Assembly: GCA_963691705.1 (NCBI GenBank)
Contig: OY829541.1
Span: forward strand, 46,393,661 to 46,457,660
Reading direction: 5' to 3'
Origin: Viola odorata
Taxonomy: Eukaryota; Streptophyta; Magnoliopsida; Malpighiales; Violaceae
DNA: 64,000 nt
The notes below the pieces were generated by a model, which had not been told where the DNA came from, did no database searches, and saw nothing but the letters and a program-made list of their open reading frames with translations. A program made the translations under genes and the position numbers. Each line of letters begins with the position of its first letter. The first letter of the stretch is position 1. Of the stretch, positions 15,083 through 63,281 are shown piece after piece.

Positions 15083-15332
15083 TTACTCCTTTTTGAAAAA
15101 AATATATATGTTTGCACGTTTTCTTACGAAAATATTTTTGTGGGGACTCATGTTCCCCTTTGTTAAAAATCAATATATATGCAATTTTCATTTTTAGGCA
15201 TCTCTTCTTTTCGCATTTTTAATTTCAGGATAAATATTAGTTCGGATTGTCTTGATAAAACCTATGTCTTTATGGTAGAAGAAATCGTCATCGCGACCGA
15301 AGACAAGGCCGAAATCTCCAGCGAATTGGCCC

Positions 15333-16136
15333 TTGGCCCGTTTACTAGCAAGTTCGGAAAAGGAAATAACCCCTCATCGGGAGGAATTGGAAGAAGTAAA
15401 TTTAGGGGCAAGCAATGAGAATCAGAAGCTGGTTAAGATCGGAACCACCCTAGACACGACTCAGAGAGAAAGGTTGATCTCTCTCCTAAAAAACTACTCG
15501 GACGTATTCGCATGGTCATACGTCGATATGCCAGGTATTGATCCTGGGATAGTCAAGCATCGTATCCCATTGAAACCTGAGTTTAAACCTGTCAAACAAA
15601 AGCTTGAAGAAAATCATCCAAAAATAGTAGTCACTCGCAAAGACTGGCATGACATGCTTCCTTTCGTACTGTATGCTTATCGGATAACAACTCGGACGTC
15701 CACAGGGGCAACTCCTTACTCATTAGTTTACGGTATGGAAGCCGTCATCCCTCTGGAGGTAGAAATCCCTTCTCTCAGAATCCTAGCAGAGTCCGAAGTA
15801 GAAGAATCGGATTGGGCAAGAGTGAGGTACGAGCAGTTGAACCTCCTTCCCGAAAAGCACTTGGCCACTATCTGCCATGCACAACTGTATCAGCAAAGGA
15901 TGGCCAGCACTTATAACAAGAAAGTGCGACCTCGTAAGTTCAAGACTAGGGATTTATTGTTGAAGAAAATTCTCCCTCATCAGGAGGTTAGTCAAGGAAA
16001 GTGGGCCCCAAGGTACGAGGGCCCTTATCTAGTTAAAAGTGCATTCTCGGGGGGTGCCCTGATGCTAACCAACATGGACGGAGATGATCTACCAAGACCG
16101 GTAAATGTCGATGATGTCAAGATGTACTTCGCTTGA
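15333..16136 (+). pseudogene. Chimeric remnant: start of RT region fused to integrase C-terminus
   Basis: The first part (NYSDVFAWSYVDMPGIDPGIV.. KPVKQKL) is the conserved lead-in to a Tat-type reverse transcriptase. Directly after KQKL (about 15604) the frame reads KDWHDMLPFVLYAYR and STGATPYSLVYGMEAVIP, the end of the integrase core and its C-terminal domain, through GPYLVKSAFSGGALML to the stop. The RT palm, both RNase H domains and the integrase D,D,E core that should lie between are gone. The frame stays open across the join. A fusion transcript is possible, but no known enzyme activity would remain. Confidence 0.88.
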
Positions 16137-30451: not shown

Positions 30452-31449
30452 TCTCTATAAGATCGTTTAAGGACCTAACCTTTTTATTTTTATTGGTATC
30501 GATTTTTGGAATAAGTTATAAAATCACGTTTGTAAATTAAAGAATTAAGCCATGCTTCTTTACTAAAATTAGGAAAAGATTTTTTGTTGTGAAATGGCAA
30601 CAGAAATGTGTGTGGTCCATTGGAATAGTTTTGGGAGAGAGTGATATCGATATGTGTTAAACATGATGATTTTGATTTCCTCTAGGGTGCCTATCATGCT
30701 CCTAACTAAGTTTGCCCATGATTCATTTGAAAAATAGAAAAAATAATGGAGGCGGGTGACGTGTCAAAGGGGTTGCGAACTTGAATCAGGGGCTCTGTCA
30801 TTTGATGTTTTGAAGTGCCAATATATGTTTCTGACATGGCTTGTTGCTGCTCAAAGGACTGATGATCTGAGGCTGAGCATTCAAAACGTGGTCATGACTC
30901 ATGAGGCCAAAAATCCATCACTAAATGCACAATGCAGCAGATTGTTGAGAGCCTGAGAGTCTGCGACTTGTCATCAATGGCTCGCTTTTAAATTTAGTGC
31001 TGCAAAATCCATCAAATGATTACACCACTCCCCTCCCCGCGTCATGTCCTATTCTTCTTCAATATTTAGCGTCGTCAACTTAGCCCCCACCAAAAACAGA
31101 AAAAAGAAAAATAAGAAAAAAAATTAATTCTTTTAATCCATTGATTTTAGAATTAGTTCTATTTTATTTTAAGAATCATTTGACCTTAAAATTATTAACG
31201 TGTATAAAATAAAAAAAATAAACTTGTTAAATATTTTTTTTAAATAAAACAAATAAAATGAGATATTAAATAATGTATCACTCTTAGTCTAGTGTCAAAG
31301 TGTCTTCCCTTGTGCCACCGGATTAGGGTTTGAATCTCATGACCTGCAAAAACTTTTGGAGGTTACGTAACACCCGTGGTTGTGAAGAGGTGGGTTATGC
31401 AGGTTTCGGTGTCAGTTGGAGATGTTGTGGGCGAATACGACGTGGAGTA
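30452..31449. other. Intergenic, no supported gene
   Basis: AT-rich flanks around a short GC-richer patch (30740-30960) with a 66-residue open frame. It has no recognised domain, no start context of note and no splice partners that I could assign. Confidence 0.4.
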
Positions 31450-31457
31450 ATTCTAAT

Positions 31458-31983
31458 TAGGGATGGCAATTGGGCGGGCATGGAGCGGGTAAGCACTATC
31501 CATACCCGCACCCGTAAATTTACGGGTAATCCATACCCGCATCCATATCCATATGGAGCGGGTAAAGAAAAGATAATTTTACTCGCGGATAACCCGCGAA
31601 TACCCGCGGATACCCGTATATTTGGTTAAAATTTAAATTTCAATCAAATTAATATATAAAAAAATAAATCTAATTTAATAACAATACCACACAATAATAC
31701 GGATATTATACGAGAAAAGAAAAGACTAAAGAGGGGCTTTTTTTTAGGGTTGGTATATATATTTCTTGCGGGTATTATTGTGGATATCCATACCCGCACT
31801 TTGCGGATATTTCGTGCGGGTATTGGAGCGGATAAGCACTATCCATACCCACATCCATACCCACATTTTGCGGGTGCGGGTATATCCATACCCATAAAAT
31901 ACCCACAATATACGGATAATACCCATCCACAATTGCGGATATTGGGCGGATATCCATATCCGCGGGCGAGATTGCCATCCCTA
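31458..31983. mobile_element. hAT-type MITE with perfect 8-bp target duplication
   Basis: The 526-bp element has terminal inverted repeats TAGGGATGGCAAT / ATTGCCATCCCTA and is flanked by ATTCTAAT on both sides (31450-31457 and 31984-31991). The interior is a mesh of direct and inverted CCATACCCGC / GCGGGTATGG motifs. It has no transposase. An 8-bp duplication and TAGGG-type ends are the hAT signature. Confidence 0.93.
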
Positions 31984-32084
31984 ATTCTAATCGGAGGTCT
32001 GTATAATTGTTTTGGGGTTTGATTTGGCACATGTTTTCGGGCCTTCCTCTTGGGCCAACAATCTATTGACCATAACTATGCTTG

Positions 32085-32350
32085 TTTAGGAAATGTCCGG
32101 TTCTGATGGGTCTGGAACGGACTGAACCAGACAGTTCGGTCCGGTTCCAATCCGGTTCCGTTTTTTAATATAATTAATTAAATCCAACAAGCCCAGCCCA
32201 ACCCATCACCAGTAGCGGCCCAAGAAGCAGGCCAGCTCCAACAGCTCTCCCCAAAACCTGTTGTAAAGGAATGCGTGGGAGGGGATTCGAACCCCCTTCC
32301 TTTAGCTTAAAAATAAAATTTTTAACCACTGAAACAAAGGAAAACTTTAA
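32085..32350. repeat. Dispersed repeat fragment with CCGGTTC and GGATTCGAACCC motifs
   Basis: It contains several CGGTCCGGTTCC-type motifs (32090-32160) and then GGGGATTCGAACCCCCTTCC with TTAACCACTGAAACAAAGG (32278-32341). A similar pair of blocks in the opposite order lies at 42235-42500 on the other side of the large mariner element. It probably belongs to a non-autonomous DNA transposon family; the borders are not resolved. Confidence 0.4.
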
Positions 32351-32738
32351 TAAATATTGCATATATATATATATTTGGAATATGAGTTTGTCATACATTT
32401 ATAAATAAAACTCTTATAATATATATTTTTCTATTGACAAGATTTGAATTTGAACCATATTTAATTTATTAAAAAATATAATAAATTAATATTTTAAAAA
32501 ATCATGCTACATATCATTAATTGTCATTAAATATTACAAGAATATAAGTTACACTTCTCGATTTATTCATAACGTTATTTATCAAGAATAAATAACTTGT
32601 GGGAGCCAAAGTTAGTTTTTAATTTTTTGTACGATGTGTCAAGATTAATATCATCTTTCAATTAACTATTTTCAATTGATCTATAATGTAATATATAAAA
32701 CCACGACTCCTAGAGAGTTTTTTTCTCTTAATTAAATA

Positions 32739-32769
32739 CTCCCTCCGGGGCAAAACAAACGTCGTTTTG
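32739..32769. repeat. Left terminal inverted repeat of the giant mariner element
   Basis: CTCCCTCCGGGGCAAAACAA then ACGTCGTTTTG. It matches the inverted right end (41902-41932) at about 25 of 31 positions, mismatches mostly single. The leading CTCCCTC is shared with Stowaway MITEs in this window. Confidence 0.85.
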
Positions 32770-33245
32770 CCGTAGGGCACGTGGCTTAAGAAAATGATTG
32801 CTGGGGAGAAAACGAGGCATTTTTTGACCAAACTACCCCTAGCTGACCTTCCTATTTACTCCTGGACTGTGGCTTCATTCTGACCCAGATGGCTTGAAGC
32901 CGGGCTTGGCAATTTGGGCCAAGTGCTTCTCGGTTGGGTTGGGTTTGGTCTTGGCAGAAACGACTGCGTGTTGAGGGAAATATGTAAGACATCGACTCCA
33001 AATATCCAAGCTCCCCCCATTTCCAATCTTCCCCAAATTCCCAAATGCTGCAAAAGTTTAAACCATTCCCGCACAAAATGGGAACGAAATTTGGGCACAA
33101 TTTTAATTGCCCGCAATTTTGAAAGCAATTTATGTTTAATTTTGTAAAGTCCTTCAATCCCTACCTCTGTTTGCCCTCCCTCCCTACCTCTGTTTGCCCT
33201 CCCAAACCCTAAAAAACCTCTCTTCAAAGAAATTTGCATAAATCA

Positions 33246-34840
33246 ATGGAGATTGGGGATTTTAACCCTTTCGCTGACCTTCGCGGAGACCCTAACATCC
33301 CTGCTTATGTAGGACACTTACTCCAATGCGGCGACAACCAACCTTTCTCAGATGACGGAGAGGAGGAGTTCGTGGATCCCCGAAATGACGAGGGCGGAGA
33401 TGACGAGGACATTCCAGACTTAAACTTAGAGCCTCAGCCGGAAAGTGAAGATGAAGGTCATCCATATTTAAGTTGATAACTATTTTCGTGTATGATCATA
33501 GATAAATTCTGTTTTCATTTTCCTAAGTATGTTTGTGTGTGTCAGGTGCAGGACAACATTTAGGCAAGCGACGGCACAGAGAAATCGGCGACGATGACAG
33601 GGTTGCGGCATATGAGATGCTGTTGCGGAAGAGTGAGGACGGCAAGCTTGGCCGACGAGCAACAAGTGAGGTCGCTGCAGCCTTCAACATTTCAATTCGA
33701 TCTGTCCAGAGGTTGTGGAAATGGGGCCGAGAGTCTATGAATCACAATGTCAGCCGCCTCAGAGTGAACAATACTGGGAGGAAAAGGGTAGACTTTGATT
33801 GGCAGGCAATCCGGGAGATTCCTCTGAGGAAGAGGACCACTATGAGGAATCTCTCCACAGCACTAAAAGTGTCCAGGAAACGTTTGTCATATGCCATGAA
33901 GAGTGGAGAGGTCAGGCGGCATTCTAATGCCATCAAGCCTATTTTGACTTAGGCTAATCGACAAAAACGGATTGAGTTCTGCCTCTCAATGCTGGATCCA
34001 CATTCACCTCCTGCTGACCAGAGCTTCCAAGATATGGCCAATGTGGTGCACATTGACGAGAAGTGGTTTCACATGACAAAGAAGACACAAACATACTACT
34101 TGTTGGCAGACGAGGATGATCTAGTAAGAAAACTTAAATCCACTAATTTCATTCCAAAAATTATGTTTCTAGCAGCTGTAGCTAAGCCTAGGTATATGCA
34201 TGATGGTAGATGCACTTTTGATGGAAAATTAGGTATATTTCCTTTGGTAGATGAAGTCTGTGCTGTTAGGTCTAGTGTAAACAGACTGGCAGGGTCAATG
34301 GAATTGAAGCCAATTGAAAAGATAGATAGGGATGTCATTAGGAAATTCATGATTGATAAGGTTTTGCCTTCAATTAGGGCTAAGTGGCCTGTAGAGAACA
34401 TTGGAGATCCAATCATTATCCAATAGGATAATGCCAAGACTCATATCCTGCCTCATGATGAATTCTTTTCAGCTGCTACCTCTCTGGGATTGAATGTTAT
34501 ACTGTCATGTCAACCCCCTAACTCTCCTTATCTTAATGTCCTTGATCTTGGGTTCTTTAGGGCTATACAATCTCTCCAAGAACAGGAATGTGCTAGGTCT
34601 GTGGCAGAATTGGTTGCAGCCGTACATAAGAGTTTTATTGAGTTTCCTGATATCAAGTGTAATTATATATTTCTCATTCTTCAGTCCTGTATTGTTGAAA
34701 TTCTGAAACTTTTGGGGGATAACACCTATAAAATCCCTCACATGAGTAAGGAGTCCTTGGAAAGGCAAGGGCTGCTCCGTCTAGTCCTATCATGTGACTC
34801 CTTAATCATTGCAAATGCAAGGGCTCATCTACTCCCATAG
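33246..34840 (+). pseudogene. Mariner-like transposase (plant DDD type), two exons, two in-frame TAG codons
   Basis: Exon 1 is 33246-33456 and exon 2 33546-34840, with a GT..AG intron that keeps the frame; about 501 residues, normal for plant mariner transposases. Residues 1-70 are acidic and end in PDLNLEPQPESEDE. Residues about 72-200 hold two helix-turn-helix units (VAAAFNISIRSVQRLWK; LSTALKVSRKRL). The catalytic triad is intact: D241 in HIDEKWF, D365 in DNAKTH, D404 in NVLDLGFF, the last spacing close to the plant DD39D type. TAG at 33950-33952 and 34424-34426 interrupt the frame; the second replaces the Q before DNA, a CAG>TAG change. Otherwise the frame is intact, so inactivation is recent or depends on readthrough. 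Confidence 0.9.
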
Positions 34841-36046
34841 CCTGTAAGTACTCTTACTTAATCATTTTGTTTTTGTTATTTGTGTGGTTATGGATCTGCT
34901 GTGATTAATTTGCTATTACATGCTTGCAGGAATACATGAGGATTTCAGCCGTAGTTTGTGGTAGACAGTGGAAAGGGATTTTTGGTTGTGCATTAGAAGT
35001 AATTATATAATTGACCCATATTTTGGGTAATGATGATGATCACATTATCCATCAATCTTAGTGTTTGCATTTGCAGTCAGCAGTAAATAGCAACTTTTTG
35101 TGCAGTATATAGGTTGTACAGGTCGTATACCATGATGCAATGATCAGTATAGATCATTTACTTGGGCAGTAGTTGATGTATAGGTGAACACTGTCATAGT
35201 CTAGACCTGTATCATGGATTTTGTTAACTGGAAATACTACTACGATGTATTTTCTGGGTTTACAATGCATTTTCTGGGCAGTGGTTGAATGTATAATTTA
35301 TGCACTGTATGATGATGATCATGATGATTATATAGACCAAATTCTATAATGATAATGTATGAAATTTTTATTGTTCTATGATGATGTTGATGATGACGAT
35401 GATGATCATGTTGCTCAATTTTCTTGCAGAGTCCACCCCAATGAAACCAGCTGAAAGGCAAGAGGCTTATGATCATCTACTTCATGCCCAGGTTGTGAGT
35501 GAGCACAACCTGTTGCCGACTTTTACCCCATTTCATAGATCTGTCCATGTTGTGGTTGGATATTTATTGGTTTGCCTTGTGTGATGTATTGTTATCTTAA
35601 TGAGGTAGGCCATGAGCTTGGCCTACCTCTGTCGCTTAAACGTTAATTCAGGGCTTGACCCCGAGCTTGGCCTAGGGCTTGGCCAACACTGAAGCTCCCA
35701 ATCGAATAAGTAAACAATCTTTATTTTTATTTAATTAAATAAAATTAAAGATTAACGGATCAATTCTCGGTGGAAACGTCTCACTCTTTCAAATTCAAAT
35801 TGAGGTTTTTCCTTCCCAATACACCACAGAGAATCAAAAGGTCACAATTGCCATAACCGACACCAATTGAACGGCGTCTGACCCGTAACGGTGATTAGGC
35901 AGTTGGGAATTCGTTGTTATTCAAACCGTATACTTTCCCTTGACCGGTGCATCCAGCATATCAACCTTTCCCATTATCCTTCCTCCTTTCTTCTTCATTT
36001 TTCCTTTTGTTTAGCCTGTTACGTTTCTTGTCGCCGCCTATCAACA
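34841..36046 (+). other. Non-coding stretch after the transposase, with splice-like signals
   Basis: A donor-like CTGTAAGT at 34844-34851 is followed by acceptor-like TGCTTGCAG before 34930, and another TTCTTGCAG ends near 35429, so the transposase transcript may have spliced 3' untranslated exons. An ORF at 35378-35584 begins in a GAT/ATG microsatellite and is not convincing. GAGCTTGGCCTA-type words recur at 35610-35690. Confidence 0.45.
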
Positions 36047-36403
36047 ATGAATCGTGAAGACAAAAGAACGATGTTAGAAGTATACGGCGTCACCAGCAGA
36101 ACCCTCCAACGTGACACTGGGTTGTTGGACACCACTATCACCTCTACGGAGACCGAACTTGAGCGGATTGAGGACATGATTGAGGATCTCAAACATCGCA
36201 AGGATCAAATCTTCGCGGATGACTACATGGCGTTCAAGACAGTAAATACAATGTCTGACTGCATTACTCATCTCTCTCTTGCTGCTGCAAAACTGGAGCA
36301 GAAGGTCTCTGCACTGCGGGTGGCCCGAGATGCTGTGAACAAGGGCAGGACTGAGATGAATAGGTTTGCTAATGCCATGCCTGGGATCCCCACTAATGAG
36401 TAG
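36047..36403 (+). CDS. Small coiled-coil protein, cargo gene of the giant mariner element
   Basis: 118 residues starting MNREDKRTMLEVYG and ending FANAMPGIPTNE. Residues about 25-60 and 75-105 are highly charged with leucine and isoleucine at heptad spacing (ERIEDMIEDLKHRKDQIF; LSLAAAKLEQKVSALRVARD), so an elongated helical or dimerising protein is likely. There is no signal peptide or membrane segment. I do not recognise the family. It has a paralogue on the opposite strand of the same element (39936-39553) with the same length, layout and C-terminal FANA(M/I)PGIPT motif. That two copies were kept, and this one is fully open, argues that it is a real gene of the element. Function is unknown; a partner of the element's other proteins is only a guess. 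Confidence 0.7.
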   Translation: MNREDKRTMLEVYGVTSRTLQRDTGLLDTTITSTETELERIEDMIEDLKHRKDQIFADDYMAFKTVNTMSDCITHLSLAAAKLEQKVSALRVARDAVNKGRTEMNRFANAMPGIPTNE

Positions 36404-36787
36404 ATTGTGTTTCTTTAATTTCCCTATATTGTGCCTTTGTTTCTTACTCTTTTATCCAGTGTACTTGAACTTTTTAATGTGCAATTTATTTTCCGCGAAG
36501 TATTGGGTTTTTAGTGAAAATGTTGTATGGTGGCTTCGGTTTATTCCTTGTTTCGGATGTTACTTTTTCAATGTGTTAAAAGATGAAATTGTCTAGGCCT
36601 AGCTAGTGGCCTTGACAGGTGCTTGGCCCCAAACATCCATACTCTAACAAAAATGCGCATAAAATATTTATCAACACAACATGTCGCGAATAATCAGGTC
36701 ATCATTAGCATCAAATAAAAGACAGAAAACAATAGTTTCATCAGACAAAGTCATTCGTAATATTAAAAAAGAGACATCCTTCCCGGT

Positions 36788-39001
36788 TTAGCTTTCCTTA
36801 ACAGGGGGGGGGTGTGTGTGTGGGACTGATGAAGTGAGAGCTGCCTTATCGGGGGGGGGGGGGGGGGGAGGAGGGGTTGGGACTAATGAGGTGGATTTGA
36901 GATCATTCAACAAATGCCTCAGGATTCCTGAGACCACTTTGTCAAGGCTTTTAATACTGTCAGTGATATTCCACAAGCACGCGGCTATTTTTTTATAGCT
37001 TTCGGCTAGATTTACAATGTCACCATTTAGGGTTGAGATAAGTTGATGTTGTTGCGAGAGCTGGTCCTGGTAGCCATTGATGATCTGCTGCATGTTTAGC
37101 TGGCTTTCCATCATGTTGCGTGCCCAGGATGGTGGGGAGCTTGAGGATGAGGGTTGCTCAGTGCTGCCAGCTTGGCCTCTGGAAGCATCTTGGGCTCTCC
37201 TTACGGCTTGGCCGATCCCATCTTCTGGTATTTCATCATTAACAATTGATCGGATGAAGTGTCTTCCATCATACTTCTTCCCCCAAATGTGTTCCTCCAC
37301 ATCTGTGAATCCAACATTGTAATGAACATAACCATCTACCAAATGGAAGTACCCCATTTGGTCAAAGGCTCTCATATCAAGTACTTTAACATCACAGAAT
37401 TTATGGAGATCAGTAGGATGAAGATGTAAGCTTGTAGAAGTCACAACTAGCTTGGTTATCAAGGATCCCAGAATCATCTTACCCCCCTGATGGTATGCAT
37501 GCAGTTGCCTGGCTAGCCAATATGCTAGGTTCACCCTCTTCTTATGCACCATGCACCACAACAAGAACAACTCAAGTCTGGACAAATTCCCAGACACAAT
37601 AGTTTTCCCAGCGAGGTTAAAGGTCAGTGCTCTGTGGATCATCCTAAGGGTTGGGTCTCTAATTTGGTGTGCCTTGGAGTGTTTGTCGAATGAAGCCGTA
37701 GGGTCTCCAGTCAACTCTTGATATGCGGCCGCGAAATCATAATCTTTGGGATAATCAGACACTGCATTCAAATGATTAGGGGATAGCAATTCATCCGCAT
37801 TCACAAATCCAAGCATCAAATTGAACTCATTTATTGACTTATGGTTCCAAACACCACACAATTGGAAGTTAACAACGTTAGGAGCATCAAAATCCAGTCT
37901 ATTTCTTCCCCTAATGGACAGACTCTTATGGTCGAACCAAAATGTGGTATGGAATTCTAAACAAAGCTCAGAATAAGCAGCATCCAACACCAGCAGTAGG
38001 CATTACCAACCAATATTTTGCATATAAGTTTTAATTCTGTCACCAACTCCTAAGGGGTCTAGAGAATCAAAATCAAACGTTGCATACGGAGTGATATCAC
38101 AAGTAAGTTTTTCCACTAGTTTGGCTTTGAGGTCTAAAGTATCAAACCTCAACCAACCTCTCAAATATTCAAGTGGGGGTACCTTGGTGGGCTTGGCCGT
38201 TAGATTGGCCAAGACTTCATCCTCTGCATCCTCAGTCAAATCTTCTATGTCAGCATCGGGGTCTACCTCTTTTTCCTTCAGTGGCCGCTCTCCTTGTGAT
38301 TTGGTGGAGGCTTTAGAGCTTTGCCCTTTCTTCATAGCAATCGGCTTAACCCCAGCGGGTTGCTTATTTGGAGGAGTACCGGTGGCCTCGGCTTGTGATT
38401 TGGTGGAGGCTTTAGAGGTTTGCCCTTTCTTCATATGAACCTGCTTTTTCCCAGAGGGGAGCTTATTTGGAGGACTTCCGGTGGGCACCCCTTGTGATTT
38501 GGTGGAGGTTTTAAAGCTTTGCCGTGTCGTGCGTTTATCGACCGCCCCTGCTGCCTCCTAAATCTCCATCTCCGTCACAAGCTTCCTAGGGTTTGCCCTG
38601 ACGACTTTCTTGATAGCAACCTGCTTCGCCCGGGGGCGCTTGAATGCAGAACGAAAGCTTACATTGCCATCGCAACTTGAGGATATTTTTCTTCTGGTCC
38701 TCCTCTCTATTCTGCCATCAACTTCTGGTACTGGTCTCTTCAGTTTCATTTTGGCCCCCTCACCCGCGTCTGTGTCACTCAACTCAATCGCTCTGTCTTT
38801 CCCCTTCACGCTCTCCTCTGACCTAGAGTTTTCATCTCCTGCACACTCATCCTTATTGAAGATTGCCGCTTGTTCAGCGTCTATTTCTCTGATGACTGCA
38901 TCAATCAGTTGTTTAACCCGTCCTTGTGCTGACGGCCCTGCCGAAACTGGTTCGGTCGCGGACGGCGGGGTGTCATGAGGGTCGCTTGAGTTGCTGGCCA
39001 T
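36788..39001 (-). pseudogene. Large nuclear-type protein resembling plant transposon protein / Athila ORF1 families
   Basis: One minus-strand frame runs from ATG at 39001 to the stop at 36788, 737 codons, interrupted only by TAG at 38558-38560 and TAA at 38003-38005. The N-terminus is acidic, then strongly basic (KLKRPVPEVDGRIERRTRRK; AFKRPRAKQ), probable nuclear-localisation signals. Three tandem linker repeats of about 33 residues follow (STKSQ..TG.PPNK.P.G.K..MKKGQ.S). The C-terminal half carries a folded domain with GKTIVSGNLSRLELFLLWCM and VNLAYWLARQLHAYHQGGKM, which resembles the plant 'putative transposon protein' and Athila ORF1 type. It ends with a Q-rich coiled stretch and PTPPPPPPPPP, encoded by a G homopolymer at 36851-36868. 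Function unknown. No LTR accompanies it, so it appears to belong to the mariner element. Confidence 0.65.
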
Positions 39002-39552
39002 GGGATCAGGGTTTGTTTGAAAAGTGAGAGGTAAAAGTGGAAGTAATGGGAAGTTGATGCGGTTTAGAGTGGGTTTATTTAATGAAGAAGATGAAGTGGG
39101 TTTTGGCCCTTTTGGGAGTAGTATTTGCCAAAACATGAAAAGACTGGGTCGCTTCTGGCTAGGCCTGGCAAATTCCAAAATTTCACACATTGAATAATTC
39201 CACAAAATGATTATTCCATATGGCCATCTTCTTCACTGGCAGTGGATGGTAGGCCTCTTTCCATTGTGATTGATGTTGCATTTCATCCATGCTTTTGGTT
39301 AAATGCTTCTCTAGATAATGATCATCTTAGATGAGCTTTACTCTATTTTAATGATAATTGTTTCAATTCTTTGTACTTATCAGTCGTTGGTGTTTTAGTT
39401 ACACTGAACTTCTATAATGCTTGCCGGATAATGCACTGGAAATTATACACACACAGAAGTGAGGAATTATGTGACATGAAAAAGAGACGGTGCTTTTATT
39501 TATTGATAACAACCCAAGGACATACCACTCGGGTGGATTACAAACACCCTAA
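39002..39552. other. Intergenic between cargo genes
   Basis: The minus-strand frame of the large gene stays open upstream to 39205 but without a better start than 39001. At 39222-39243 the minus strand repeats an 18-base segment also found in the acidic-protein gene (encoding ASEEDGH at 41250), possibly a small duplication. No gene is supported. Confidence 0.4.
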
Positions 39553-39936
39553 CTACTCAGACCCAGATTCATCATCGATTGTTGGGATGCCTGGAATGGC
39601 ATTAGCAAAGAGATTCAATTGAGCAAGAGCAAGCCTTGCACTATTAAGAGCCAGGTTGAGCCCTTCTCTCTTTTGGTTAAGGTGAGCAATGGAGAGGTTA
39701 AGATGGTTGATAGCCTCGTTGTATGACTTGATTGCAGTCAGTGCCAACCCCTCATGCTCAGCATCTTCGTATACCTCATCCTTCCTAGCCTTCATGTCCT
39801 CCAACAACTCATTATACTCTTTCATGTCCTGGTTGGTCTAAAGAATCCTGTTCTCCAGCTGCACGATGTCCATGTCCAGATGACCTGAGTAGCGACCTGT
39901 AGCATTGTGGATCTCTTCCTTCCTCTCACGATCCAT
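39553..39936 (-). pseudogene. Paralogous coiled-coil protein with one in-frame TAG
   Basis: The frame from ATG at 39936 to the stop at 39553 codes for 127 residues starting MDRERKEEIHNATGR and ending FANAIPGIPTIDDESGSE. TAG at 39838-39840 (ENRIL*TNQDMKE) breaks it after residue 32, most simply CAG>TAG. An ATG at 39825 could give a 90-residue N-terminally shortened product. The middle is charged and heptad-like (YNELLEDMKARKDEVYED; LNLSIAHLNQKREGLNLAL). The layout matches the 118-residue protein at 36047-36403, so both derive from one ancestor and now lie in opposite orientation inside the same transposon. Confidence 0.65.
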
Positions 39937-41022
39937 TATTCTCAACCTGCACAGAGAAAGCTTAAAAGAGCAAAGGAGATAAGCAGTAAACAACAGAAGA
40001 GAAGAGACAGTTTAGGGATGAAGCATATTAGGTTAAAGTATGGTGGTATTTATAGGAGCCTCAGTAGGGTTACCTGAGGTTATGTGATAAGGTGCATTAA
40101 AGGAAAAGAGTCTGTCAACCAAACAGTCGATATGGTCAAACTGTCATGCAACACACAAACCAAACCATTGCATCCAAACCAAACCAGTTATGAAAAATAC
40201 ACACAAACTGCATTATACCATTACTCTAACCATTGCATCACTTTGAGAATGTTAAAGGTTGACTCTAGTAGTAATTGGGAATCCAACTACAAGTCTACAA
40301 TGTGCAGAGTTGGGGAACTGTTATCTAGGCCAATCCCCTGCACTAGCTCAGGTATAGATCATTGAATGGTCCAATCGGCAACAGGGTCTTGGGGAACTGT
40401 TATTGAAAATACATCAATTCCCAACAATTATTTCCAAGTTGACCTTGCATCAATAGGCATTCATAATTATCATTCCAGGTGCCTCTACTTGCAACATCCA
40501 AGCAATCAAAGCACAGAAGAAGAAGGTTTCTAAACAAGGAATAACAAGTATCCTAACACAAGTGATGCACCTCAGAGCAAATGAAACAGAGTCCGTACTC
40601 AATGTAGTTGCTTTTGCTCATGCAATTCCATATGCAAACCAAACCAACAATTCAGAACTCATAAAAGTGGAACAGATTAAAAGAACAGGGCAGCAAAGCA
40701 ACTGGATCCAACAGCCTAAAATAGGGACAATTGAAGAAAAACATCAGACAACCTTAATGGGAACACAATGAGATAGCCAATACAAATTCATTAACTAGAG
40801 GAATAATATACATCATCAGTTGGACACCATTCCTAAAATGGATCACAACGGTTGCCCATCCTAAATCCACCATCCTACTACTACCATAAACACCCTACTA
40901 CATTGCAGAAAGTGGCCATCCAAACAGAAAATAACATTCAGTCTACCAGGAACACTAATATAGCAAAAACTGGTCATCCAAAAGTCAACACACTTATGTC
41001 TACAACCAACAACCTAATATAT
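39937..41022. other. Non-coding stretch inside the giant mariner element
   Basis: AC-rich sequence with many CCAAACC-type words and no supported gene on either strand. AGTTGGGGAACTGTTAT-like words occur twice (near 40310 and 40390), suggesting a small local duplication. Confidence 0.45.
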
Positions 41023-41607
41023 TCAGTAGTAATCAGGGAGAAGAATACGCAACATTTTGATGAAGCTCTCTTCGTGGAAAGGGTGCTCATCTTTAGGGCG
41101 AAACATACCTCGGATTGGCAACTTATTGAGATCGAAATCCATATCCACCTTCACTTCAGATGTATGCATTAAATCCTCAGTGGTAGGTAGATTTAAATCG
41201 GGAATTTTATACTTCTTTGGACGCCCATGATTAAAGCCGAGATGCCCATCTTCTTCACTGGCAAGAGAGCATGAAACCTCCTCCGCTTCCAAAACACTCA
41301 CACGGGCGGCCATTTCTTCCTCGGACACAAGCATCATCTCTTCAAACACGACATCGTCTTCACTCTCGTAGGTATCTGGCACAATCACATCCATTTCACA
41401 GATTACATCCGCCGCAACAGCCACCGGCCAGACATCATCTCCAACCGCCGCCTCCGCGACTGCATCACCTTCGACCTCCGCCACCGCGGCGACATCATCC
41501 TCAACCCCAGGGACTCCAATTGAATATGGAACGAACATACCCATAACCGGATCAAATTGCATGCAACTATCATCCTGGGAATCATCCCAGAAATCAACAC
41601 CCTCCAT
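41023..41607 (-). CDS. Acidic protein with DLNLP-type motifs, cargo gene at the right end
   Basis: An uninterrupted 194-residue ORF starting MEGVDFWDDSQDD about 325 bases inside the right end and reading inward, mirroring the transposase at the left end. Residues 1-125 are very acidic and alanine/valine-rich. Residues 128-134 (GRPKKYK) are a basic patch resembling an AT-hook core. Then come IPDLNLP (136-141) and FDLNKLP (158-164), which match the DLNxxP and LxLxL forms of the plant EAR repression motif. Exon 1 of the transposase has a similar IPDLNLEP, so the two may share an ancestral N-terminal exon. I do not recognise a known family. A nuclear, transcription-related or DNA-end-binding role would be inference only. 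Confidence 0.65.
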   Translation of the reverse strand: MEGVDFWDDSQDDSCMQFDPVMGMFVPYSIGVPGVEDDVAAVAEVEGDAVAEAAVGDDVWPVAVAADVICEMDVIVPDTYESEDDVVFEEMMLVSEEEMAARVSVLEAEEVSCSLASEEDGHLGFNHGRPKKYKIPDLNLPTTEDLMHTSEVKVDMDFDLNKLPIRGMFRPKDEHPFHEESFIKMLRILLPDYY

Positions 41608-41901
41608 TTGGAAAATTATAAATTAAAACTACAGATTTGCAAAGAAATAAAAACTGAAATTGAAGATTGAATTTTGGGATTCTGCCCTTCTTCGTGGAGG
41701 ACGGTATAAATAGGGAAAAGTTTCCGTTCCCCCAAAAATTTGAGATTCAAACTCAAAATTGAGGTATAAGGAGTCAGTAGTCGAAGCCGAAGCCGACCTC
41801 CGAGTCGTCGTCGTCGTCACCAGCAGCGGCAAGGGGCACCCTCGTCTTCTCCAGCCTGGGGAGTCGCCCACGACATTTGTTGGGGACATGCTTTTGGGGC
41901 G

Positions 41902-41932
41902 TAGAACGACTTTTGTTCCGCCCCAGAGGGAG
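41902..41932. repeat. Right terminal inverted repeat of the giant mariner element
   Basis: Ends TTCCGCCCCAGAGGGAG followed by the TA duplication. The complement starts CTCCCTCTGGGGCGGAACAA, matching the left end. Confidence 0.85.
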
Positions 41933-42234
41933 TATCTTATTATTTTTTTTTAAATCCAATTATACAAACACACATGTTTTATTTGATACTTTTACGACTT
42001 ATTTGGTTGCCCGTAATGAACCATAAGAAATGTGAATGGATTCAATGGAGGTAGGGAGTGAGAATTATGGAGTATGTCTTAATGTGTTTAGTATCCTACT
42101 ACTAGAAATGAGAATAAAAAAGTTTGAATGACTCATTATTTTGATTTGGTATGAATGACAAAGATTAAGAAAATGAAAGTAAATTTCGTGAAATTAAACT
42201 ATTTACACCTGGAAAATAATTTTGAGGGGAAGGG

Positions 42235-42510
42235 GAAGGGGATTTGAACCCCCCTTCCCTTTAGAGAGGGAACCTAACCTTTTACCACTGAGATAAAGTA
42301 TTAACTTGATATAAATATGCGTATATAAATATTTATATATATAAATATATATAAAAAATTTCGGTTCTCCCGATTCTACGGTTTGGTTTAGGGGTTTTGA
42401 CAGTGGCAGAACCGGACAGAACTGAAATTTTCAGTTCGGTCCGGTTCGGTACAAAATACTCCGATTCCGATTCCGATTCGATTTTCAGTTCAATCCGGTT
42501 TTCTTACACC
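42235..42510. repeat. Dispersed repeat fragment, counterpart of 32085-32350
   Basis: It carries GGGGATTTGAACCCC and ACCTTTTACCACTGAGATAAAG, then an AT microsatellite (42315-42355), then CGGTCCGGTTCGG and TTCCGATTCCGATT words, ending CTTACACCCCTA. The complement of that end (TAGGGGTGTAAG) resembles a hAT terminus. The same word set occurs left of the giant mariner element. Confidence 0.4.
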
Positions 42511-42866
42511 CCTACTAATTGGAGTGATGGATCAGTGGGATTCACTTTCAACCTTAATATTATATTAAAATTAATGAATGAATAGTTTGGAGCTAGCAAT
42601 TAATGATAATATGATTAATTTATTCTTTGGTTACCGTCACAATCTCAGGTCCTAGAACTAGAATTGGAGTTCCCAAGAACATTTTTCAAAATAAAAAAAT
42701 AAATTCAAAACAGAAGCATGTGATGAGATCGTTGTTGTTTCAGTTGTTCTACAGCAAAGTCCAAACCAAATACCACTCGAGGGGAAGGCAAGAGCAGAGA
42801 GATTCCCGGAAGAACCATGCGTGGGCTTAAATTAATCCACCCTATTAATTTAATTAATTAGCCCCT

Positions 42867-42902
42867 TAATCACTAATCACTAATCACTAATCACTAATCA
42901 CC
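42867..42902. repeat. Heptamer microsatellite (TAATCAC)n
   Basis: Five consecutive copies of TAATCAC, followed shortly by CCAGTT repeated three times (42907-42925). It is not the plant telomere repeat. Confidence 0.85.
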
Positions 42903-43758
42903 CATTTCCAGTTCCAGTTCCAGTTCCACCCAATAAACAACGTACATGACAACTCATCACCTCTATATTATTTTATTTTTATCTCACTAAACTCACCTCA
43001 AATAAAGGAAAATAAAGGAAAAAAGACAAAGCCAAAGCTATGCGGACGCTTAATTACAAAAAAGAAGAGAGGTAATCAATGGTCAAGATCTACCCTTCTT
43101 TTGGAAGCTAAGATCTGGTCCATCCAATTCTACACATATATCAGCTTTTCTATAGACGCCTAAAAAATGACGTGTCGATGCATTCTCCAGTCTCCGTGCC
43201 CGGTGCCACAATGAGGTGTGTTCATCTGTTCGGTTATTTCAGAAATATTCCAAAATTTTAAAAATTTGGAAATGAGAAAATACTATTTCAATTTACAATC
43301 TAACCCTGACTTAAAAAGAATTACAATCTAACCCATTATCACCAAAACATTTCATGCATTATCTGTTTATATTTACTGTCAACTCCAGTGGTAGACCAAG
43401 TATTGAAGTAAAAAATTATTTATTTGCAAATTAATGCCTTTGCCATTACATCCGTACACTGTTAAAAAGCTAAGTCTCATCTCATCTGACGGTCTTGATT
43501 AAGATGCAACGTGCAGTTGCTTTTCTATGACTTTGTTAAACATTTTCCTCACTCACTTGTTTGATAGATGAGATCATGGCCGTCGAAACTGAATAATATA
43601 GCTTCTGTTCATGTCAATGATACTATACTACTGCCACTTCCTCTCCCACTGAACTGATAGCGAGTCAAATTATGATTGGACGGCCATGATGTCATCATAA
43701 TAAAAAAAATTCACATCAGATCATTCCATTTCCTCCACTCATTATTTTCATCTCTTAC

Positions 43759-43761
<3 letters not shown>

Positions 43762-43791
<30 letters not shown>
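43762..43791. repeat. CT dinucleotide tract upstream of TIR1
   Basis: About fifteen CT units lie roughly 620 bases upstream of the TIR1 start codon. Long CT/GA tracts are common in promoters and 5' leaders of plant genes. Whether it lies in the transcript is not visible here. Confidence 0.8.
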
Positions 43792-43793
<2 letters not shown>

Positions 43794-44412
43794 GCCCTCG
43801 TTTTCCGATCCCTCAGATCAAGCCGTGCAACGCGAGATCATGAGATTCCCTCCCCCACCTCCCCATCCTACTGCTACACATCACCGCAGTTTATCTCTAC
43901 CCCTCATGAGAAATTGACAATAAATTGTGCCACGTCAACCTCCATTTCCATCTTCTCTCTCCTAAGTTCATACACAGCACCACACCCGATTCCTGCGGCT
44001 CCGGTTCGTCGCAAACGGATAAGATATCAATTTCTTCCCGCACCGCTCATCGAACGGCCACCATTCACTCCTTCACCACGTGTCATAATCACATTCCCAC
44101 GAGCACACTCTCTCTCCTCTTTAACCATGGTTAAAAAACATAATCCACCACTCTCACAAACATAAAACCCCTCCCCTCCTTATGCTCACCTCGATCGTTC
44201 TCTCTCTTTCCAGCTAATAAGCTCATTCTTCTTTTCTTCTTAGATCTAACTATTAATAATTAATAATATTAATAATAATAATAACAGTAACAGCGGCAAT
44301 TAACGAGTGTAACAACTGAAACGACGTTGCTTCCTTATCCCCGCTGAAGATTCTTGTTGCTATTATTGTTAAATCATCATCATCTTCTTCTTCTTACTCA
44401 TAGTAGTAATAA

Positions 44413-47375
44413 ATGTTGAAGAAATCAATGATGGATAATTTGTTCCCTGAAGAAGTTTTGGAGCATGTTTTTTCGTTCATACAGAGCGATAAGGACAGGA
44501 ACGCGGTATCAATGGTGTGCAAGTCGTGGTATGAGCTGGAAAGGTGGTGCAGGAGGAGGATTTTTGTCGGTAACTGTTACGCGGCGAGTCCGGCAATGGT
44601 TGTGAGGAGGTTTCCGGAGGTGAGATCGGTGTCATTGAAAGGGAAACCGCACTTTGCAGACTTCAATCTGGTGCCTGATGGCTGGGGAGGTTATGTTTAC
44701 CCGTGGATCGTGGCGATGGCCACGGCGTATCCTTGGTTGGAGGAGATCAGGTTGAAGAGAATGGTGGTTACGGATGAGGCATTGGAGCTTATAGCTAATT
44801 CGTTTAAGAATTTTAAGGTTCTGGTGCTCTCCTCCTGTGAAGGCTTCTCCACTGATGGCCTCGCTGCCATTGCTGCTAATTGCAGGTTCGGCTTAGTTGT
44901 TGTGCTTGTTGATGCTCTTGTAGTTTCATTTTGAAGCCTTTTTTGTGGGGGTATTTAAACGGTAAATTTTTATAAACAAATGAGAATGGAGCTTCAGTTG
45001 TTTCTAGTTGTTTGTGTGAATGTGAGGATGTATGTGTTTATGCAGAGGTCTGGTTTGTAGCTTTTGTGACTAGATTCGGAAATGTCAAGTTTTTTGTTTT
45101 CTTGTTTTGATTGGTTTGATTCTTGAGTAATGTTTTTCTTTGTAGTGGATCCGGATGTACTTGTTACTTGGAAGGATAGTTGTGTGGGAAATCTAGTTTA
45201 GATTGTGTGGTTCCTTCTTTTTCTTTTACCTCCTTATGCTAATTTGTTTGTTGTGGTGGTGGAGCGTGATGTGAGGCTATTTTCTGGGATTTTTGGATTC
45301 TTGCATCTCTCTACATTGAGGGCTTCTTTTGGATTCATTAACTAGATTCTCTTTTCGTTACCTTTTTTCTCTTTACATACTATTTGATAGATCTTTTTTC
45401 TTTAAGCTTTTTGACAGTGGGTGTATTCTCATTATGTTGTTGTTTAAAGACCCCTAGTGTTTTAGTTAAGGATAATTGGAGTTCAGGATTTTGCACAATG
45501 AGGATTCTTATCCTTAGAGTGGGAAAAAAACATCTTTTTCCCTTTCCAAAGGGACTTGACTTGAGGGATCAAACAACTAGATGATTAGTTTTTTCTTTTC
45601 TTAGAAGCATTTTAAGGGTAAAGTGATTTCATTATGGCGGTCTAATCATTTTTAATGATTTTCCTAATATGCTAGCTATGAACTACTAATTTTAATCAAC
45701 ATTCCATTTTTTACTAGTTTTTGTCTTTTCCATAAACCGAATTGGGGACCCGTACGAAAATTCTTCTATTTGAAAGTTAGTATATTTGTCTTTCCTCCGC
45801 GTCCTTAACAAGTTGAGCAATTTGTCTGCAGGAATTTGAGGGAGCTGGATTTGAAGGAGAGTGAGGTGGATGATCCTAATGGGCATTGGTTGAGCCATTT
45901 TCCTGATTCATTCACATCATTGGTCTCTCTTAACATTTCGTGCTTAGGGTCTGAGGTTTGTTTCTCTGCCCTGGAGCGCTTGGTGGGTCGGTGCCCAAAT
46001 TTAAGGATCCTTCGGCTCAATCGTGCTGTGCCCCTTGATAAGCTTGCCACACTGCTTCGGCGGGCTCCACAGTTAATTGAATTGGGTACTGGTACCTACT
46101 CAGGTGATCTGCGTCCTGATGACTTTTCAAACCTTTCTCTAGCTTTTGCTGGGTGCAAGGAACTGAGGAGTCTATCTGGGTTTTGGGATGTGGTCCCTTC
46201 CCACCTTCCTGCTGTTTACCCTGTTTGCTCTGGGCTAACAACATTAAATTTGAGCTATGCTAATGCACAAAGCCCCGATCTTCTTAAGCTTGTGAGTCAA
46301 TGCCAGAGTTTACAGCGCTTATGGGTATGTTTTACCTTTTGAATTTTATTTAATGTGTTTTTTATTAGCAAGCAGTGTGATTTTACATTTTAATTACTTA
46401 AGTTGTGATTTTTCCTACTGATGTGGCAATTTGTGGTATTATATTTTGTACCATGACTATGACTACAATAATATTTATGAAGGCATTTTACTTCCTAGTT
46501 TTCTTGTTGCATCAGGTCCTGGTCTCAAATTTCTTTTATTGTTAGTGCTTTAGCTAACAGAGGGCATTATCTTCCAGGTATTGGATTATATTGAAGACAT
46601 TGGTCTAGAAACTCTTGCAGCTTGTTGCAAGGATCTGCGAGAATTAAGGGTGTTTCCATCTGACCCATACGGTGCAGAAGCAAATGTTGCCTTGACGGAA
46701 AGGGGACTTGTTTCTGTTTCAGAGGGCTGTCCGAAGCTGCAATCAGTTCTGTACTTTTGCCGTCAAATGACTAATGCTGCTTTGCTTACAATTGCCAGGA
46801 ACCGTCCAAACTTGACTCGCTTTCGTCTTTGCATTATTGAGCCTCAAACCCCTGATTATTCGACTCTCCAGCCTCTTGATTTGGGTTTTGGAGCCATTGT
46901 TGAGCACTGCAAAGATCTCAAGCGCCTGTCACTCTCAGGTCTTCTCACTGATCGTGTGTTTGAGTACATTGGAACTTATGCCCAAAGGCTAGAGATGCTG
47001 TCTGTGGCTTTTGCTGGAGAGAGTGATCTTGGTCTGCATCATGTATTGTCTGGGTGTGAGAACCTACGAAAACTAGAGATTAGGGACTGTCCCTTTGGGG
47101 ACAAGGCACTTTTGGCCAATGCTCCAAAGCTGGAGACAATGCGATCCCTTTGGATGTCTTCATGCTCAGTGAGTTTTGGAGCATGTAAGCTGCTTGGTCA
47201 GAAGATGCCCAGGCTCAATGTTGAAGTCATAGATGAGCAGGGACCTCCAGTTTCGAGGCCGGAAAACTGCCCTGTTGAGAAACTTTACATTTATCGGACC
47301 ATGGCTGGGCCTAGGTTTGACATGCCGGGGTATGTTTGGACAATGGATGAAGAGTCTATGGCCAGGCTTTCTTGA
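44413..47375 (+). CDS. TIR1: TIR1-type auxin receptor F-box protein
   Basis: Three exons: 44413-44885, 45832-46324 and 46578-47375, all with GT/AG introns and joined in frame to 587 residues (family about 590). The protein is the substrate-recognition subunit of a nuclear SCF ubiquitin ligase. It binds auxin together with Aux/IAA repressors and sends them for degradation. The F-box is at residues 11-45 ([25 protein letters not shown]), the rest being leucine-rich repeats. Residues matching the auxin/inositol-phosphate site are visible: H80 in [10 protein letters not shown]405 in TRFRLCI and S440 in RLSLSG. The miR393 site is in exon 3. LDKDRN-like F-box wording, [17 protein letters not shown] and AGPRFDMPG favour TIR1/AFB1 over AFB2/3. 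All key regions are intact. The C-terminus (MARLS) is a few residues shorter than usual, where TGA interrupts. Confidence 0.95.
44886..45831 (+). other. Intron 1 of the TIR1-type gene
   Basis: 946 bases between TGCAG|GTTCGG and TCTGCAG|GAATTTG, T-rich, splitting an Arg codon (AG|G). No element or second gene recognised in it. Intron 2 (46325-46577) is 253 bases. Confidence 0.85.
47134..47154 (+). promoter_or_regulatory. miR393 target site in TIR1 exon 3
   Basis: CAATGCGATCCCTTTGGA (47137-47154) is perfectly complementary to the 5' 18 bases of plant miR393. Only the positions pairing with the miRNA 3' end differ. It encodes TMRSLW in the conserved [10 protein letters not shown] segment. In plants miR393 cuts TIR1/AFB mRNAs here, limiting auxin response. 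Confidence 0.93.
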
Positions 47376-55339: not shown

Positions 55340-56497
55340 TTAGCGCATGCCGCTAAACACTGCCCCAAAATCCAAATTTTGGGCCGAAATGAGCGAAACG
55401 AGTCGCGGCTCTTTCTCGCTTAGTACATCTTCCTCGATGAGTGTTTCACACTGTAATTCTTTGTAAATCAGATGTGATAACTTTGCTTGCAACTCCTTGC
55501 TCCTCGCACGAGTAATTGGCCCGGTGGGTGGCAACGGTATGGGGTTCGCATCATTCCCTCTCCCTTCAAAAGGATTCGCCCTCGAATCCGTACCAGCATC
55601 ATCAGCATCAGCCGCCGCAGCATCATCAGCATCATCACCTACATCAAACAACGTTAAATCAGAAACGTTGAAAGTGGCACTCACAGAACCATACGCACCT
55701 GGCAAGTCAATTTTGTAGGCATTATTGTTGATCTTCTCGATGATCTGAAATGGATCGTCGCCTCTATCTGACATCTTGCCACGACGATGGGTTGGAAACC
55801 GTTCCCGGCGTAAGTGTAGCCACACCCAATCACCCACATTGAAGGATACTATCTTCCTTCCTTCATTTCTCTTGTTCGTCAACTTCTCATTCATTCGCTC
55901 TATGTTGTGTTTGGCCTTCTCGTGTAGCTTCTTCACCAGTTCTGCTTTCTTTGCTCCATCTAAGCTAGAAACATCACTTACAGGCAAAGGGATCAAATCC
56001 AACGGTGTCATAGGATTAAAACCATACACAAGTTCAAATGGTGAAAAGTGAGTAGTAGAATGAATGGAACGATTTTAAGCAAATTCAATAAATGGTAGAC
56101 ACTCTACCCATGTAGACACATGCTTACGCAATAGAGAACCCAAGGTTCGGTTCACTACCTCTGTTTGACCGTCAGTTTGTGGATGATAAGACGTAGAATA
56201 AAGAAATTTTGTACCAAGTCTCTTCCACAAAATGCGCCAAAAGTGGCTCAGGAACTTACTATCCCTATCACTAACAATAGATAACGGTATACCATGCAAA
56301 CGTACAACTTCTTTAAAGAACAAATCAGCAATAGCAGTAGCATCATGAGTAGTAGCACATGGAATAAAATGGGCCATCTTAGAAAATCTATCCACGACTA
56401 CAAAAATACTATCCCTCCTATGCCTAGATTTAGGTAAGCCTACAACAAAATCCATGGACAGGTCGGTCCAAGGGTGGGAAGGGACAGGTAATGGCAT
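55340..56497 (-). pseudogene. Ty3/Gypsy integrase fragment (chromovirus-like)
   Basis: Two pieces in the same minus-strand frame, joined by a TAA in ..PFIEFA*NRSIHS. The first holds the integrase core: [13 protein letters not shown] and [15 protein letters not shown] with the first acidic residue, [12 protein letters not shown], and [16 protein letters not shown] with the third. The second holds the C-terminal domain: SVGDWVWLHLRRERFP-like and GDDPFQIIEKINNNAYKIDLP (GPY/F-type), then an acidic linker and ITRARSKELQAKL. The zinc-binding N-terminus, RT and RNase H are missing upstream of 56497, where the sequence changes abruptly to an LTR-like repeat. Dead relic. Confidence 0.9.
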
Positions 56498-61899: not shown

Positions 61900-61976
61900 A
61901 ATGACGAGAAGCGCACCCAACCTGTGGATAAGATGATACCGGTGCCGGTTAACGGGATAGATATCTTAGCCTAGTA

Positions 61977-63200: not shown

Positions 63201-63281
63201 TCAACCTTTGAAAAGGATATTTCGAAAACCTGAGTCTTCGGGAAGAATGCTAATTTGGGCCATTGAACTTGAGCACCGTCC

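What the first reader, a model, noticed from the sequence alone, without database searches (positions are those of the whole stretch)
32739..41932. A 9.2 kb mariner-like transposon carrying four extra genes
TA-flanked inverted ends and a plant mariner transposase define the element. It is about two to three times the usual plant size and contains four genes besides the transposase, in convergent layout (transposase and coiled-coil gene to the right; large gene, paralogue and acidic gene to the left). A mariner element with its own accessory gene set would be a new type in plants. No nested element ends were seen that would explain the extra genes away.
Basis: partly seen in the sequence, partly recalled or inferred. 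Interest (0 to 1): 0.88.

Follow-up and report, generated by a model that had tools for sequence, protein, structure and literature searches.

The report
Plant mariner transposon with extra genes
A 9.2-kilobase cut-and-paste jumping gene of a plant carries four further genes besides its transposase, other copies in the same genome carry the same set, and one gene type (a small coiled-coil protein) also sits beside the transposase of more distant relatives, suggesting that some plant mariners are multi-gene elements.

Summary
Window 32739-41932 is a plant mariner-like element (MLE): 28-bp inverted ends (24/28) flanked by TA, a DUF7769/DD39D-type transposase and four further genes. The window copy is dead (stops in transposase, large gene and second coiled-coil gene). 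Of 24 other loci fetched from the same 699-Mb genome by left-end similarity, 8 hold all five genes (a lower bound); TA flanks both ends in 13 of 13 loci whose two ends could be read. Each gene is open in some copy, though no fetched copy has all five open. Unexpectedly, the coiled-coil gene type is not private to this family: in a 60-62% transposase group, 14 of 17 have a CC2-like gene 1.3-1.7 kb downstream on the same strand (random placement 0.12 of 36). The large gene is a very distant PF20167 relative; the acidic gene and transposase exon 1 carry EAR-type DLN motifs. Best reading: a multi-gene MLE lineage with an old transposase-plus-coiled-coil core and added genes. What the accessory proteins do is inferred. 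My open-licence paper searches listed no such element.

The parts
32737..32738 (.). TA, left target-site copy
   Evidence: read in sequence; TA also flanks both ends in 13 of 13 other loci whose two ends could be read (10 of them also)
32739..32766 (+). left terminal inverted repeat, 28 bp
   Evidence: 24/28 match with right end
33246..33456 (+). transposase exon 1, acidic, with DLNLEP (EAR-type) motif
   Evidence: open frame in the window; splice donor read in sequence, its surroundings alike in copies
33546..34840 (+). transposase exon 2: DUF7769 helix-turn-helix and DD39D-type catalytic domain; two in-frame stops in this copy (33950-33952, 34424-34426)
   Evidence: (PF24964, 1.5e-18)
36047..36403 (+). 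CC1, coiled-coil gene, 118 aa, open here
   Evidence: same-strand position downstream of transposase recurs
36788..39001 (-). LG, large gene (709 aa in copy L019): basic N-terminal part with 33-aa repeat, PF20167-like core, proline-rich end; two in-frame stops in this copy
   Evidence: PF20167 in 8 of 10 core sequences, best E 4.7e-6; L019 at 21-23 bits, below the curated cut-off of 45
39553..39936 (-). CC2, paralogue of CC1, 127 aa; one in-frame stop in this copy
   Evidence: L019 version predicted as a two-helix hairpin, pLDDT 88
41023..41607 (-). AC, acidic gene (194 aa here, 244 aa in L019), with DLNLP and DLNKLP motifs; a 50-aa repeat of variable number in other copies; open here
41905..41932 (-). 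right terminal inverted repeat, 28 bp
41933..41934 (.). TA, right target-site copy

Best explanation
A broken copy of a multi-gene, formerly autonomous plant mariner-like transposon family. Shown: the unit between the two ends lies at several different TA sites with its five genes; in this family and in most of its 75-88% relatives a CC1 gene follows the transposase on the same strand, mostly 1.0-1.8 kb downstream; in a 60-62% group of MLE transposases a CC2-like gene does so; this family also holds LG, a second CC and AC on the other strand. Inferred: the DD39D-type transposase excises and inserts the unit at TA; the CC protein, predicted as a helical hairpin, is a regular partner of the transposase (scaffold or regulator of the transposition complex; about 0.5); LG and AC are nuclear regulatory proteins that act on expression or silencing of the element, AC and exon 1 through EAR-type motifs that would bind TOPLESS co-repressors (about 0.3). 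Shorter copies with the same ends and no transposase were probably moved in trans.
For: Whole-unit mobility: 8 of 24 fetched loci hold all five genes; TA on both sides in 13 of 13 readable loci. Diverged loci L029-L032 keep the same ends and order, partly deleted. Each gene is open in some copy. Constraint: dN/dS 0.55 (0.43-0.71) transposase exon 2 and 0.68 (0.55-0.84) LG, both below all five wrong frames. CC1 against CC2: 34% protein identity, synonymous sites saturated (pS 0.76, pN 0.46). CC partner: CC1-like gene on the same strand in 14/15, 31/44 and 4/19 transposases of the bands 89-100, 75-88 and 64-68%; CC2-like gene on the same strand in 14/17 of the band 60-62%; random placement 0.12 of 36, maximum 3 in 1000. 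DLNxxP in 23 of 60 N-terminal extensions of plant MLE transposases, shuffled mean 0.2.
Against: dN/dS is weak for the small genes: CC1 0.58 (0.33-1.02) with a wrong frame at 0.50; CC2 0.64 (0.37-1.24) with a wrong frame at 0.39; AC 0.57 (0.40-0.84) with a wrong frame at 0.63; exon 1 1.08; AC is 1.00 among younger copies. No fetched copy has all five genes open, and none of the diverged loci L027-L032 has all five complete. 15 of 19 transposases of the 64-68% band and 3 of 17 of the 60-62% band have no listed CC match (lists stop at 150). The DNA of those other families was not read, so their ends are unknown. The other EAR form, LxLxL, is not enriched (2 of 60, shuffled 2.7). No LG homologue was found by word-based protein search. 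Whether LG occurs in other MLE families is unknown: that search did not complete. No transcript, protein or activity data.
Confidence: 0.62

Rival explanations
1. Origin by fusion: two MLE units joined tail to tail. The left half is end - EAR exon - catalytic exon - CC1; the right half, read on the other strand, is end - AC (a leftover EAR-type first exon) - [catalytic exon lost] - CC2 - LG, so that two outer ends now move both.
For: CC2 is closer to the CC genes of the 60-62% MLE group (55-58%) than to CC1 (34%), so CC1 and CC2 are not a recent duplication within this family. AC lies next to the right end as exon 1 lies next to the left end, and both hold IPDLNL.
Against: No remnant of a second catalytic exon (tblastn of the transposase finds only the left copy in the window), no inner end-like sequence above shuffles, and AC has no alignable similarity to the 120 listed plant MLE transposases.
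Confidence: 0.3
2. The extra genes are passengers: host genes or gene fragments captured by chance (Pack-type capture), carried but not used.
For: Pack-Mariner elements exist in rice and maize (PMC8903248, passages); dN/dS of the small genes is not clearly separated from wrong-frame controls, and AC is 1.00 among younger copies.
Against: The gene set recurs in 8 of 24 loci and, with deletions, in loci 77-78% alike in the left-end probe; a CC gene also follows transposases of another MLE group; LG dN/dS 0.55-0.84 is below its wrong frames (point value 0.68 against 0.79-0.94); Pack-type elements are non-autonomous, this family has its own transposase.
Confidence: 0.15
3. LG and its neighbours are the remains of an LTR retrotransposon (an Athila-like extra ORF) that inserted into an MLE and was then carried along.
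For: LG core resembles PF20167, a domain with partial similarity to an Athila extra ORF in sunflower (PMC11728184, passages).
Against: No LTR-like long direct repeat in 31000-44000 and no gag or pol family in the ten frames scanned; L019 scores below the Pfam cut-off; LG pieces are also in the diverged loci L027, L029 and L030.
Confidence: 0.1
4. A separate transposon with its own ends and target duplication is nested in an ordinary MLE.
For: A 22-bp repeat with 21 identical bases at 39220 and 41242 brackets about 2 kb.
Against: That repeat lies inside the AC frame and upstream of LG, so it does not bracket the four genes; no inner end-like sequence of this type above shuffles (the repeat search missed even the outer ends and is no test); no copy with a clean empty site among 24 loci.
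Confidence: 0.03

Closest known systems
Plant mariner-like elements (DD39D; Soymar1, Vulmar1, Osmar, recalled) and their Stowaway MITEs
   Same: TA target, CTCCCTCC-type ends, N-terminal exon plus catalytic exon, DUF7769, DD39D spacing; transposases about 45-54% identical among the 120 listed database relatives
   Different: 9.2 kb instead of about 3.5-4 kb (recalled), four further genes, convergent layout
VANDAL / Hiun MULEs of Arabidopsis with the anti-silencing protein VANC (PMC5735166, abstract, introduction)
   Same: a cut-and-paste plant element that keeps extra genes besides its transposase
   Different: other superfamily; no VANC-type domain (DUF1985, recalled) among the Pfam matches; no non-coding k-mer above shuffles
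Extra ORFs of plant LTR retrotransposons (Athila PF20167, Retand Transposase 28; PMC11728184 and PMC11963269, passages)
   Same: LG core resembles PF20167; unknown function; opposite strand to the main gene, as in Retand
   Different: element class; LG of L019 stays below the PF20167 cut-off
Pack-Mariner (PMC8903248, passages)
   Same: mariner ends enclosing non-transposase genes
   Different: those are non-autonomous with host gene fragments; here a family with its own transposase and complete, shared genes

Membership tests
Plant mariner-like element (DD39D) | TA target-site duplication | tested here: met
   window and 13 of 13 other loci whose two ends could be read, of 24 fetched
Plant mariner-like element (DD39D) | short terminal inverted repeats of CTCCCTCC type (consensus recalled) | tested here: met
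   28 bp, 24 identical
Plant mariner-like element (DD39D) | transposase with DDD triad, 39 residues between second and third | tested here: met
   D-123-D-39-D in L021; of 5 database relatives looked at, 39 in 3, not readable by the pattern in 2. Catalysis itself not tested
Plant mariner-like element (DD39D) | DUF7769 / similarity to other plant MLE transposases | tested here: met
   1920 proteins at E <= 0.001 among 7989 scored, best 54% identity
Plant mariner-like element (DD39D) | intron between exon 1 and catalytic exon | tested here: inconclusive
   GT donor and AG acceptor surroundings recur in copies; no transcript
Plant mariner-like element (DD39D) | transposase as the only gene (usual, not defining) | tested here: not met
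   four more genes
PF20167 Transposase_32 | score above curated cut-off of 45 bits | tested here: not met
   20.2 bits window piece, 21.0 and 23.3 bits L019 whole and core; 8 of 10 members match at E <= 0.1, best E 4.7e-6, bits of the best not printed
Pack-TYPE transposon | non-autonomous, encloses host gene fragments | tested here: not met
   transposase exon 2 is open in L016, L017, L018 and L021, exon 1 as well in L017; a source of the extra genes in the host was not tested
EAR-motif protein (AC, transposase exon 1) | DLNx(x)P or LxLxL pattern | tested here: met
   DLNLEP in exon 1; DLNLP and DLNKLP in AC; binding to TOPLESS not testable here

The most novel reading that the evidence does not exclude
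Many plant mariners are two-component transposons: a transposase gene and, 1-2 kb downstream on the same strand, a gene for a small coiled-coil hairpin protein that has been kept for as long as the transposase lineages have existed and is needed for transposition or for escape from silencing; the 9.2-kb family is an expanded member that has combined the coiled-coil genes of two lineages with a PF20167-like protein and an EAR-motif protein.
Probability: 0.42. Interest if true: 0.83.

Novelty: new variant of a known kind. Interest (0 to 1): 0.72.

Why it matters
Plant mariners and their Stowaway MITEs are widespread DNA transposons of plants and are usually treated as single-gene elements (recalled). 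A conserved partner gene would change how autonomous copies are recognised, could explain why transposase-only assays miss activity, and would offer a testable system of transposon-encoded regulators in a superfamily for which my paper searches listed none. The DLN motifs at the N-terminus of many plant MLE transposases give a direct, testable link to the TOPLESS co-repressor.

Tried and rejected
Nested transposon or LTR element inside: no inner end-like sequence above shuffles, no LTR-like repeat, no gag or pol family in ten frames. LG homologues in the large protein set: none at E <= 0.001 for the whole protein (7994 candidates scored) or the core (3038 candidates); that search needs shared 5-residue words, so distant relatives can be missed; the set does hold plants. 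Structure of the LG core: pLDDT 32, not used. Fold search of the CC model: 673 matches with E <= 10, none at E <= 0.001, generic helical hairpins. Transposase against solved structures: no match at E <= 1. Repeated non-coding motif as in VANDAL: no k-mer count above the maximum of 100 shuffles. AC as a transposase N-terminus by sequence: no alignment to 120 relatives. A paper on rice DLN proteins counts non-transposon proteins (PMC6479872, one passage).

None of the listed titles and abstract openings describes a plant mariner with accessory genes; only open-licence papers are held, so this is no proof of absence. A review of giant transposons (PMC6431247) and one of plant gene capture (PMC13317346) hold the word mariner 0 times in the main text.
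Full report
What is there. Window 32739-41932 starts and ends with a 28-bp inverted repeat (24 of 28 identical) between TA dinucleotides at 32737-32738 and 41933-41934. On the + strand lie transposase exon 1 (33246-33456), exon 2 (33546-34840) and a coiled-coil gene, CC1 (36047-36403). On the - strand lie an acidic gene, AC (41023-41607), a second coiled-coil gene, CC2 (39553-39936), and a large gene, LG (36788-39001). Exon 2 has DUF7769 and, in copy L021, a D-123-D-39-D spacing. The window copy cannot be autonomous: two in-frame stops each in transposase and LG, one in CC2; CC1 and AC are open.

The family. The window lies in a 699-Mb, 26-contig genome without a name; a TIR1/AFB-like F-box gene nearby (named from recall) and the plant MLE transposase say plant. 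Left- and right-end probes gave 40 and 41 listed matches out of 332 and 377 candidates. 23 of 40 left ends have a right end on the same strand within 45 kb; 9 pairs, the window included, are 9.09-9.44 kb apart. I fetched 24 further loci chosen by left-end similarity (20, 4). 21 of 24 hold transposase; 3 (L023, L024, L026) do not, and L026 is a 1.9-kb derivative with both ends. LG covers at least 70% in 13 of 24. All five genes are present in 8 of 24: L010, L012, L015, L017, L019, L020, L021, L025 (in one search CC1 and CC2 match each other, so CC1 was checked). This is a lower bound, because in L011, L013, L014, L018 and L022 the right end listed lies beyond the fetched 10 kb. TA flanks both ends in 13 of 13 loci whose two ends could be read, with otherwise different flanks in the 10 shown. 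The eight nearly complete rows (window, L010, L012, L017, L019, L020, L021, L025) share 93.3-98.5% identity. The more diverged loci L029-L032 (77-78% in the left-end probe, 76-89% in the matches) have the same ends and order but are incomplete: L029 and L032 lack CC1, L031 has half of it; LG covers 72, 43, 17 and 0%.

Are the extra genes used? Each gene is open somewhere: transposase exon 2 in L016, L017, L018 and L021; LG in L019; CC1, CC2 and AC in many. No fetched copy is open in all five; L017 fails only in LG and L019 only in the transposase. dN/dS with 95% codon bootstrap, from 13 of the 25 copies (window and 12 loci; 9-13 rows per gene after dropping coverage under 25%): transposase exon 2 0.55 (0.43-0.71), LG 0.68 (0.55-0.84), AC 0.57 (0.40-0.84), CC1 0.58 (0.33-1.02), CC2 0.64 (0.37-1.24), exon 1 1.08 (0.52-2.45). 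Wrong frames of the same alignments gave 0.39-1.26: lowest 0.67 for exon 2, 0.79 for LG, 0.63 for AC, 0.50 for CC1, 0.39 for CC2. So constraint is visible for transposase and LG, suggestive for AC, and not demonstrated for the short CC genes in this way; among younger copies AC is 1.00. CC1 and CC2 are 34% identical over 119 columns with synonymous sites saturated (pS 0.76, pN 0.46), which speaks for long retention of coding function. AlphaFold2 gives CC2 as a two-helix hairpin (pLDDT 88, pTM 0.72, 16 sequences).

The unexpected part. The transposase protein found 95 listed places at 60-100% identity (2195 candidates). CC2 and CC1 each found 150 listed places, the limit, out of 5886 and 5338 first-look candidates, which are not confirmed matches. 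Pairing by position: band 89-100%, CC1 same strand in 14 of 15 and CC2 opposite strand in 15 of 15; band 75-88%, CC1 same strand in 31 of 44 (29 of them 1.16-1.80 kb downstream) and CC2 opposite strand in 27 of 44, either in 37; band 64-68%, CC1-like (37-40% identity) same strand in 4 of 19 and CC2 in 0; band 60-62%, CC2-like (55-58%) same strand, 1.29-1.69 kb downstream, in 14 of 17 and CC1 in 0. Random placement of the CC2 list gives a mean of 0.12 of 36 (maximum 3 in 1000 runs) for the two lower bands. Five convergent CC1/CC2 pairs at 69-76% identity point to older members; one belongs to a listed 79% transposase. Hence a coiled-coil gene downstream of the transposase is shared by several MLE groups here, and CC2 is nearer to the genes of another MLE group than to CC1.

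LG and AC. LG core matches PF20167 in 8 of 10 sequences, best E 4.7e-6, but L019 scores 21-23 bits against a cut-off of 45, so it is not filed there. PF20167 has partial similarity to an Athila extra ORF (PMC11728184, passages). No LG homologue was found by word-based search of 5.8 billion proteins, although the transposase found 1920, many of the 120 listed from named plants. AC and exon 1 hold DLN motifs of the EAR type (DLNx(x)P as defined in the abstract opening of PMC9956375, seen). Of the 120 listed transposase relatives, 60 have an N-terminal extension of 30 or more residues; 23 of these have DLNxxP (mean of 200 shuffles 0.2, maximum 2) and 35 have DLN (3.7, maximum 10), while the other EAR form LxLxL is not enriched (2 against 2.7). 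This is a pattern, not a shown function.

How it probably works. Shown: the unit lies as a whole at several TA sites. From established knowledge of the superfamily: such a transposase cuts and pastes between its ends, and short copies with the same ends are moved in trans. Inferred: CC acts with the transposase; LG and AC act on expression or silencing. An origin by tail-to-tail fusion of two MLE units fits the mirror-like order (end, EAR-type exon..., CC on each strand) and the affinity of CC2, but no second catalytic exon and no inner end above shuffles was found, and AC does not align with transposases.

Novelty. Searches of open-licence papers (listings) showed no plant mariner with accessory genes. 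I rate it a new variant of a known kind.

Noticed in passing
proteins P0002-P0121; window 33246-33456: N-terminal extensions of plant MLE transposases are rich in DLN / DLNxxP motifs (23 of 60 with DLNxxP, shuffled mean 0.2; LxLxL not enriched), the EAR-type pattern that recruits TOPLESS co-repressors.
   Followed up: partly
39220-39241 and 41242-41263: 22-bp repeat with 21 identical bases; one copy in the AC frame, the other upstream of LG. Unexplained, perhaps filler from repair.
   Followed up: no
38287-38528 and AC in L019, L020: 33-aa (99-nt) repeats in LG and a 50-aa repeat of variable number in AC (194 aa in the window, 244 in L019, 294 in L020).
   Followed up: partly
44413-47375: TIR1/AFB-like F-box and leucine-rich-repeat gene (named from recall), start 2.5 kb from the right end of the element; the element may sit in its upstream region.
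   Followed up: no
G000 left-end matches ending at query 338 or 405; L026: Several matches end at the same internal points (4 at 338, 8 at 405 of 40 listed); L026 is a 1.9-kb derivative with both ends, perhaps of a young MITE-like family.
   Followed up: no
G000:C3:50232247-50251470: Three right ends on the same strand within 20 kb, suggesting local duplication of a copy.
   Followed up: no
11872-16136, 55340-56497, 59779-63935: gag-, integrase- and RNase-H-like frames of Ty3/gypsy-type retrotransposons (judged by eye, not searched).
   Followed up: no
32114-32300 and 42200-42447: The two flanks hold similar short stretches in the same orientation (repeat D9 and a GATTCGAACCCC-like motif), so the element may sit between two copies of a small repeat.
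   Followed up: no
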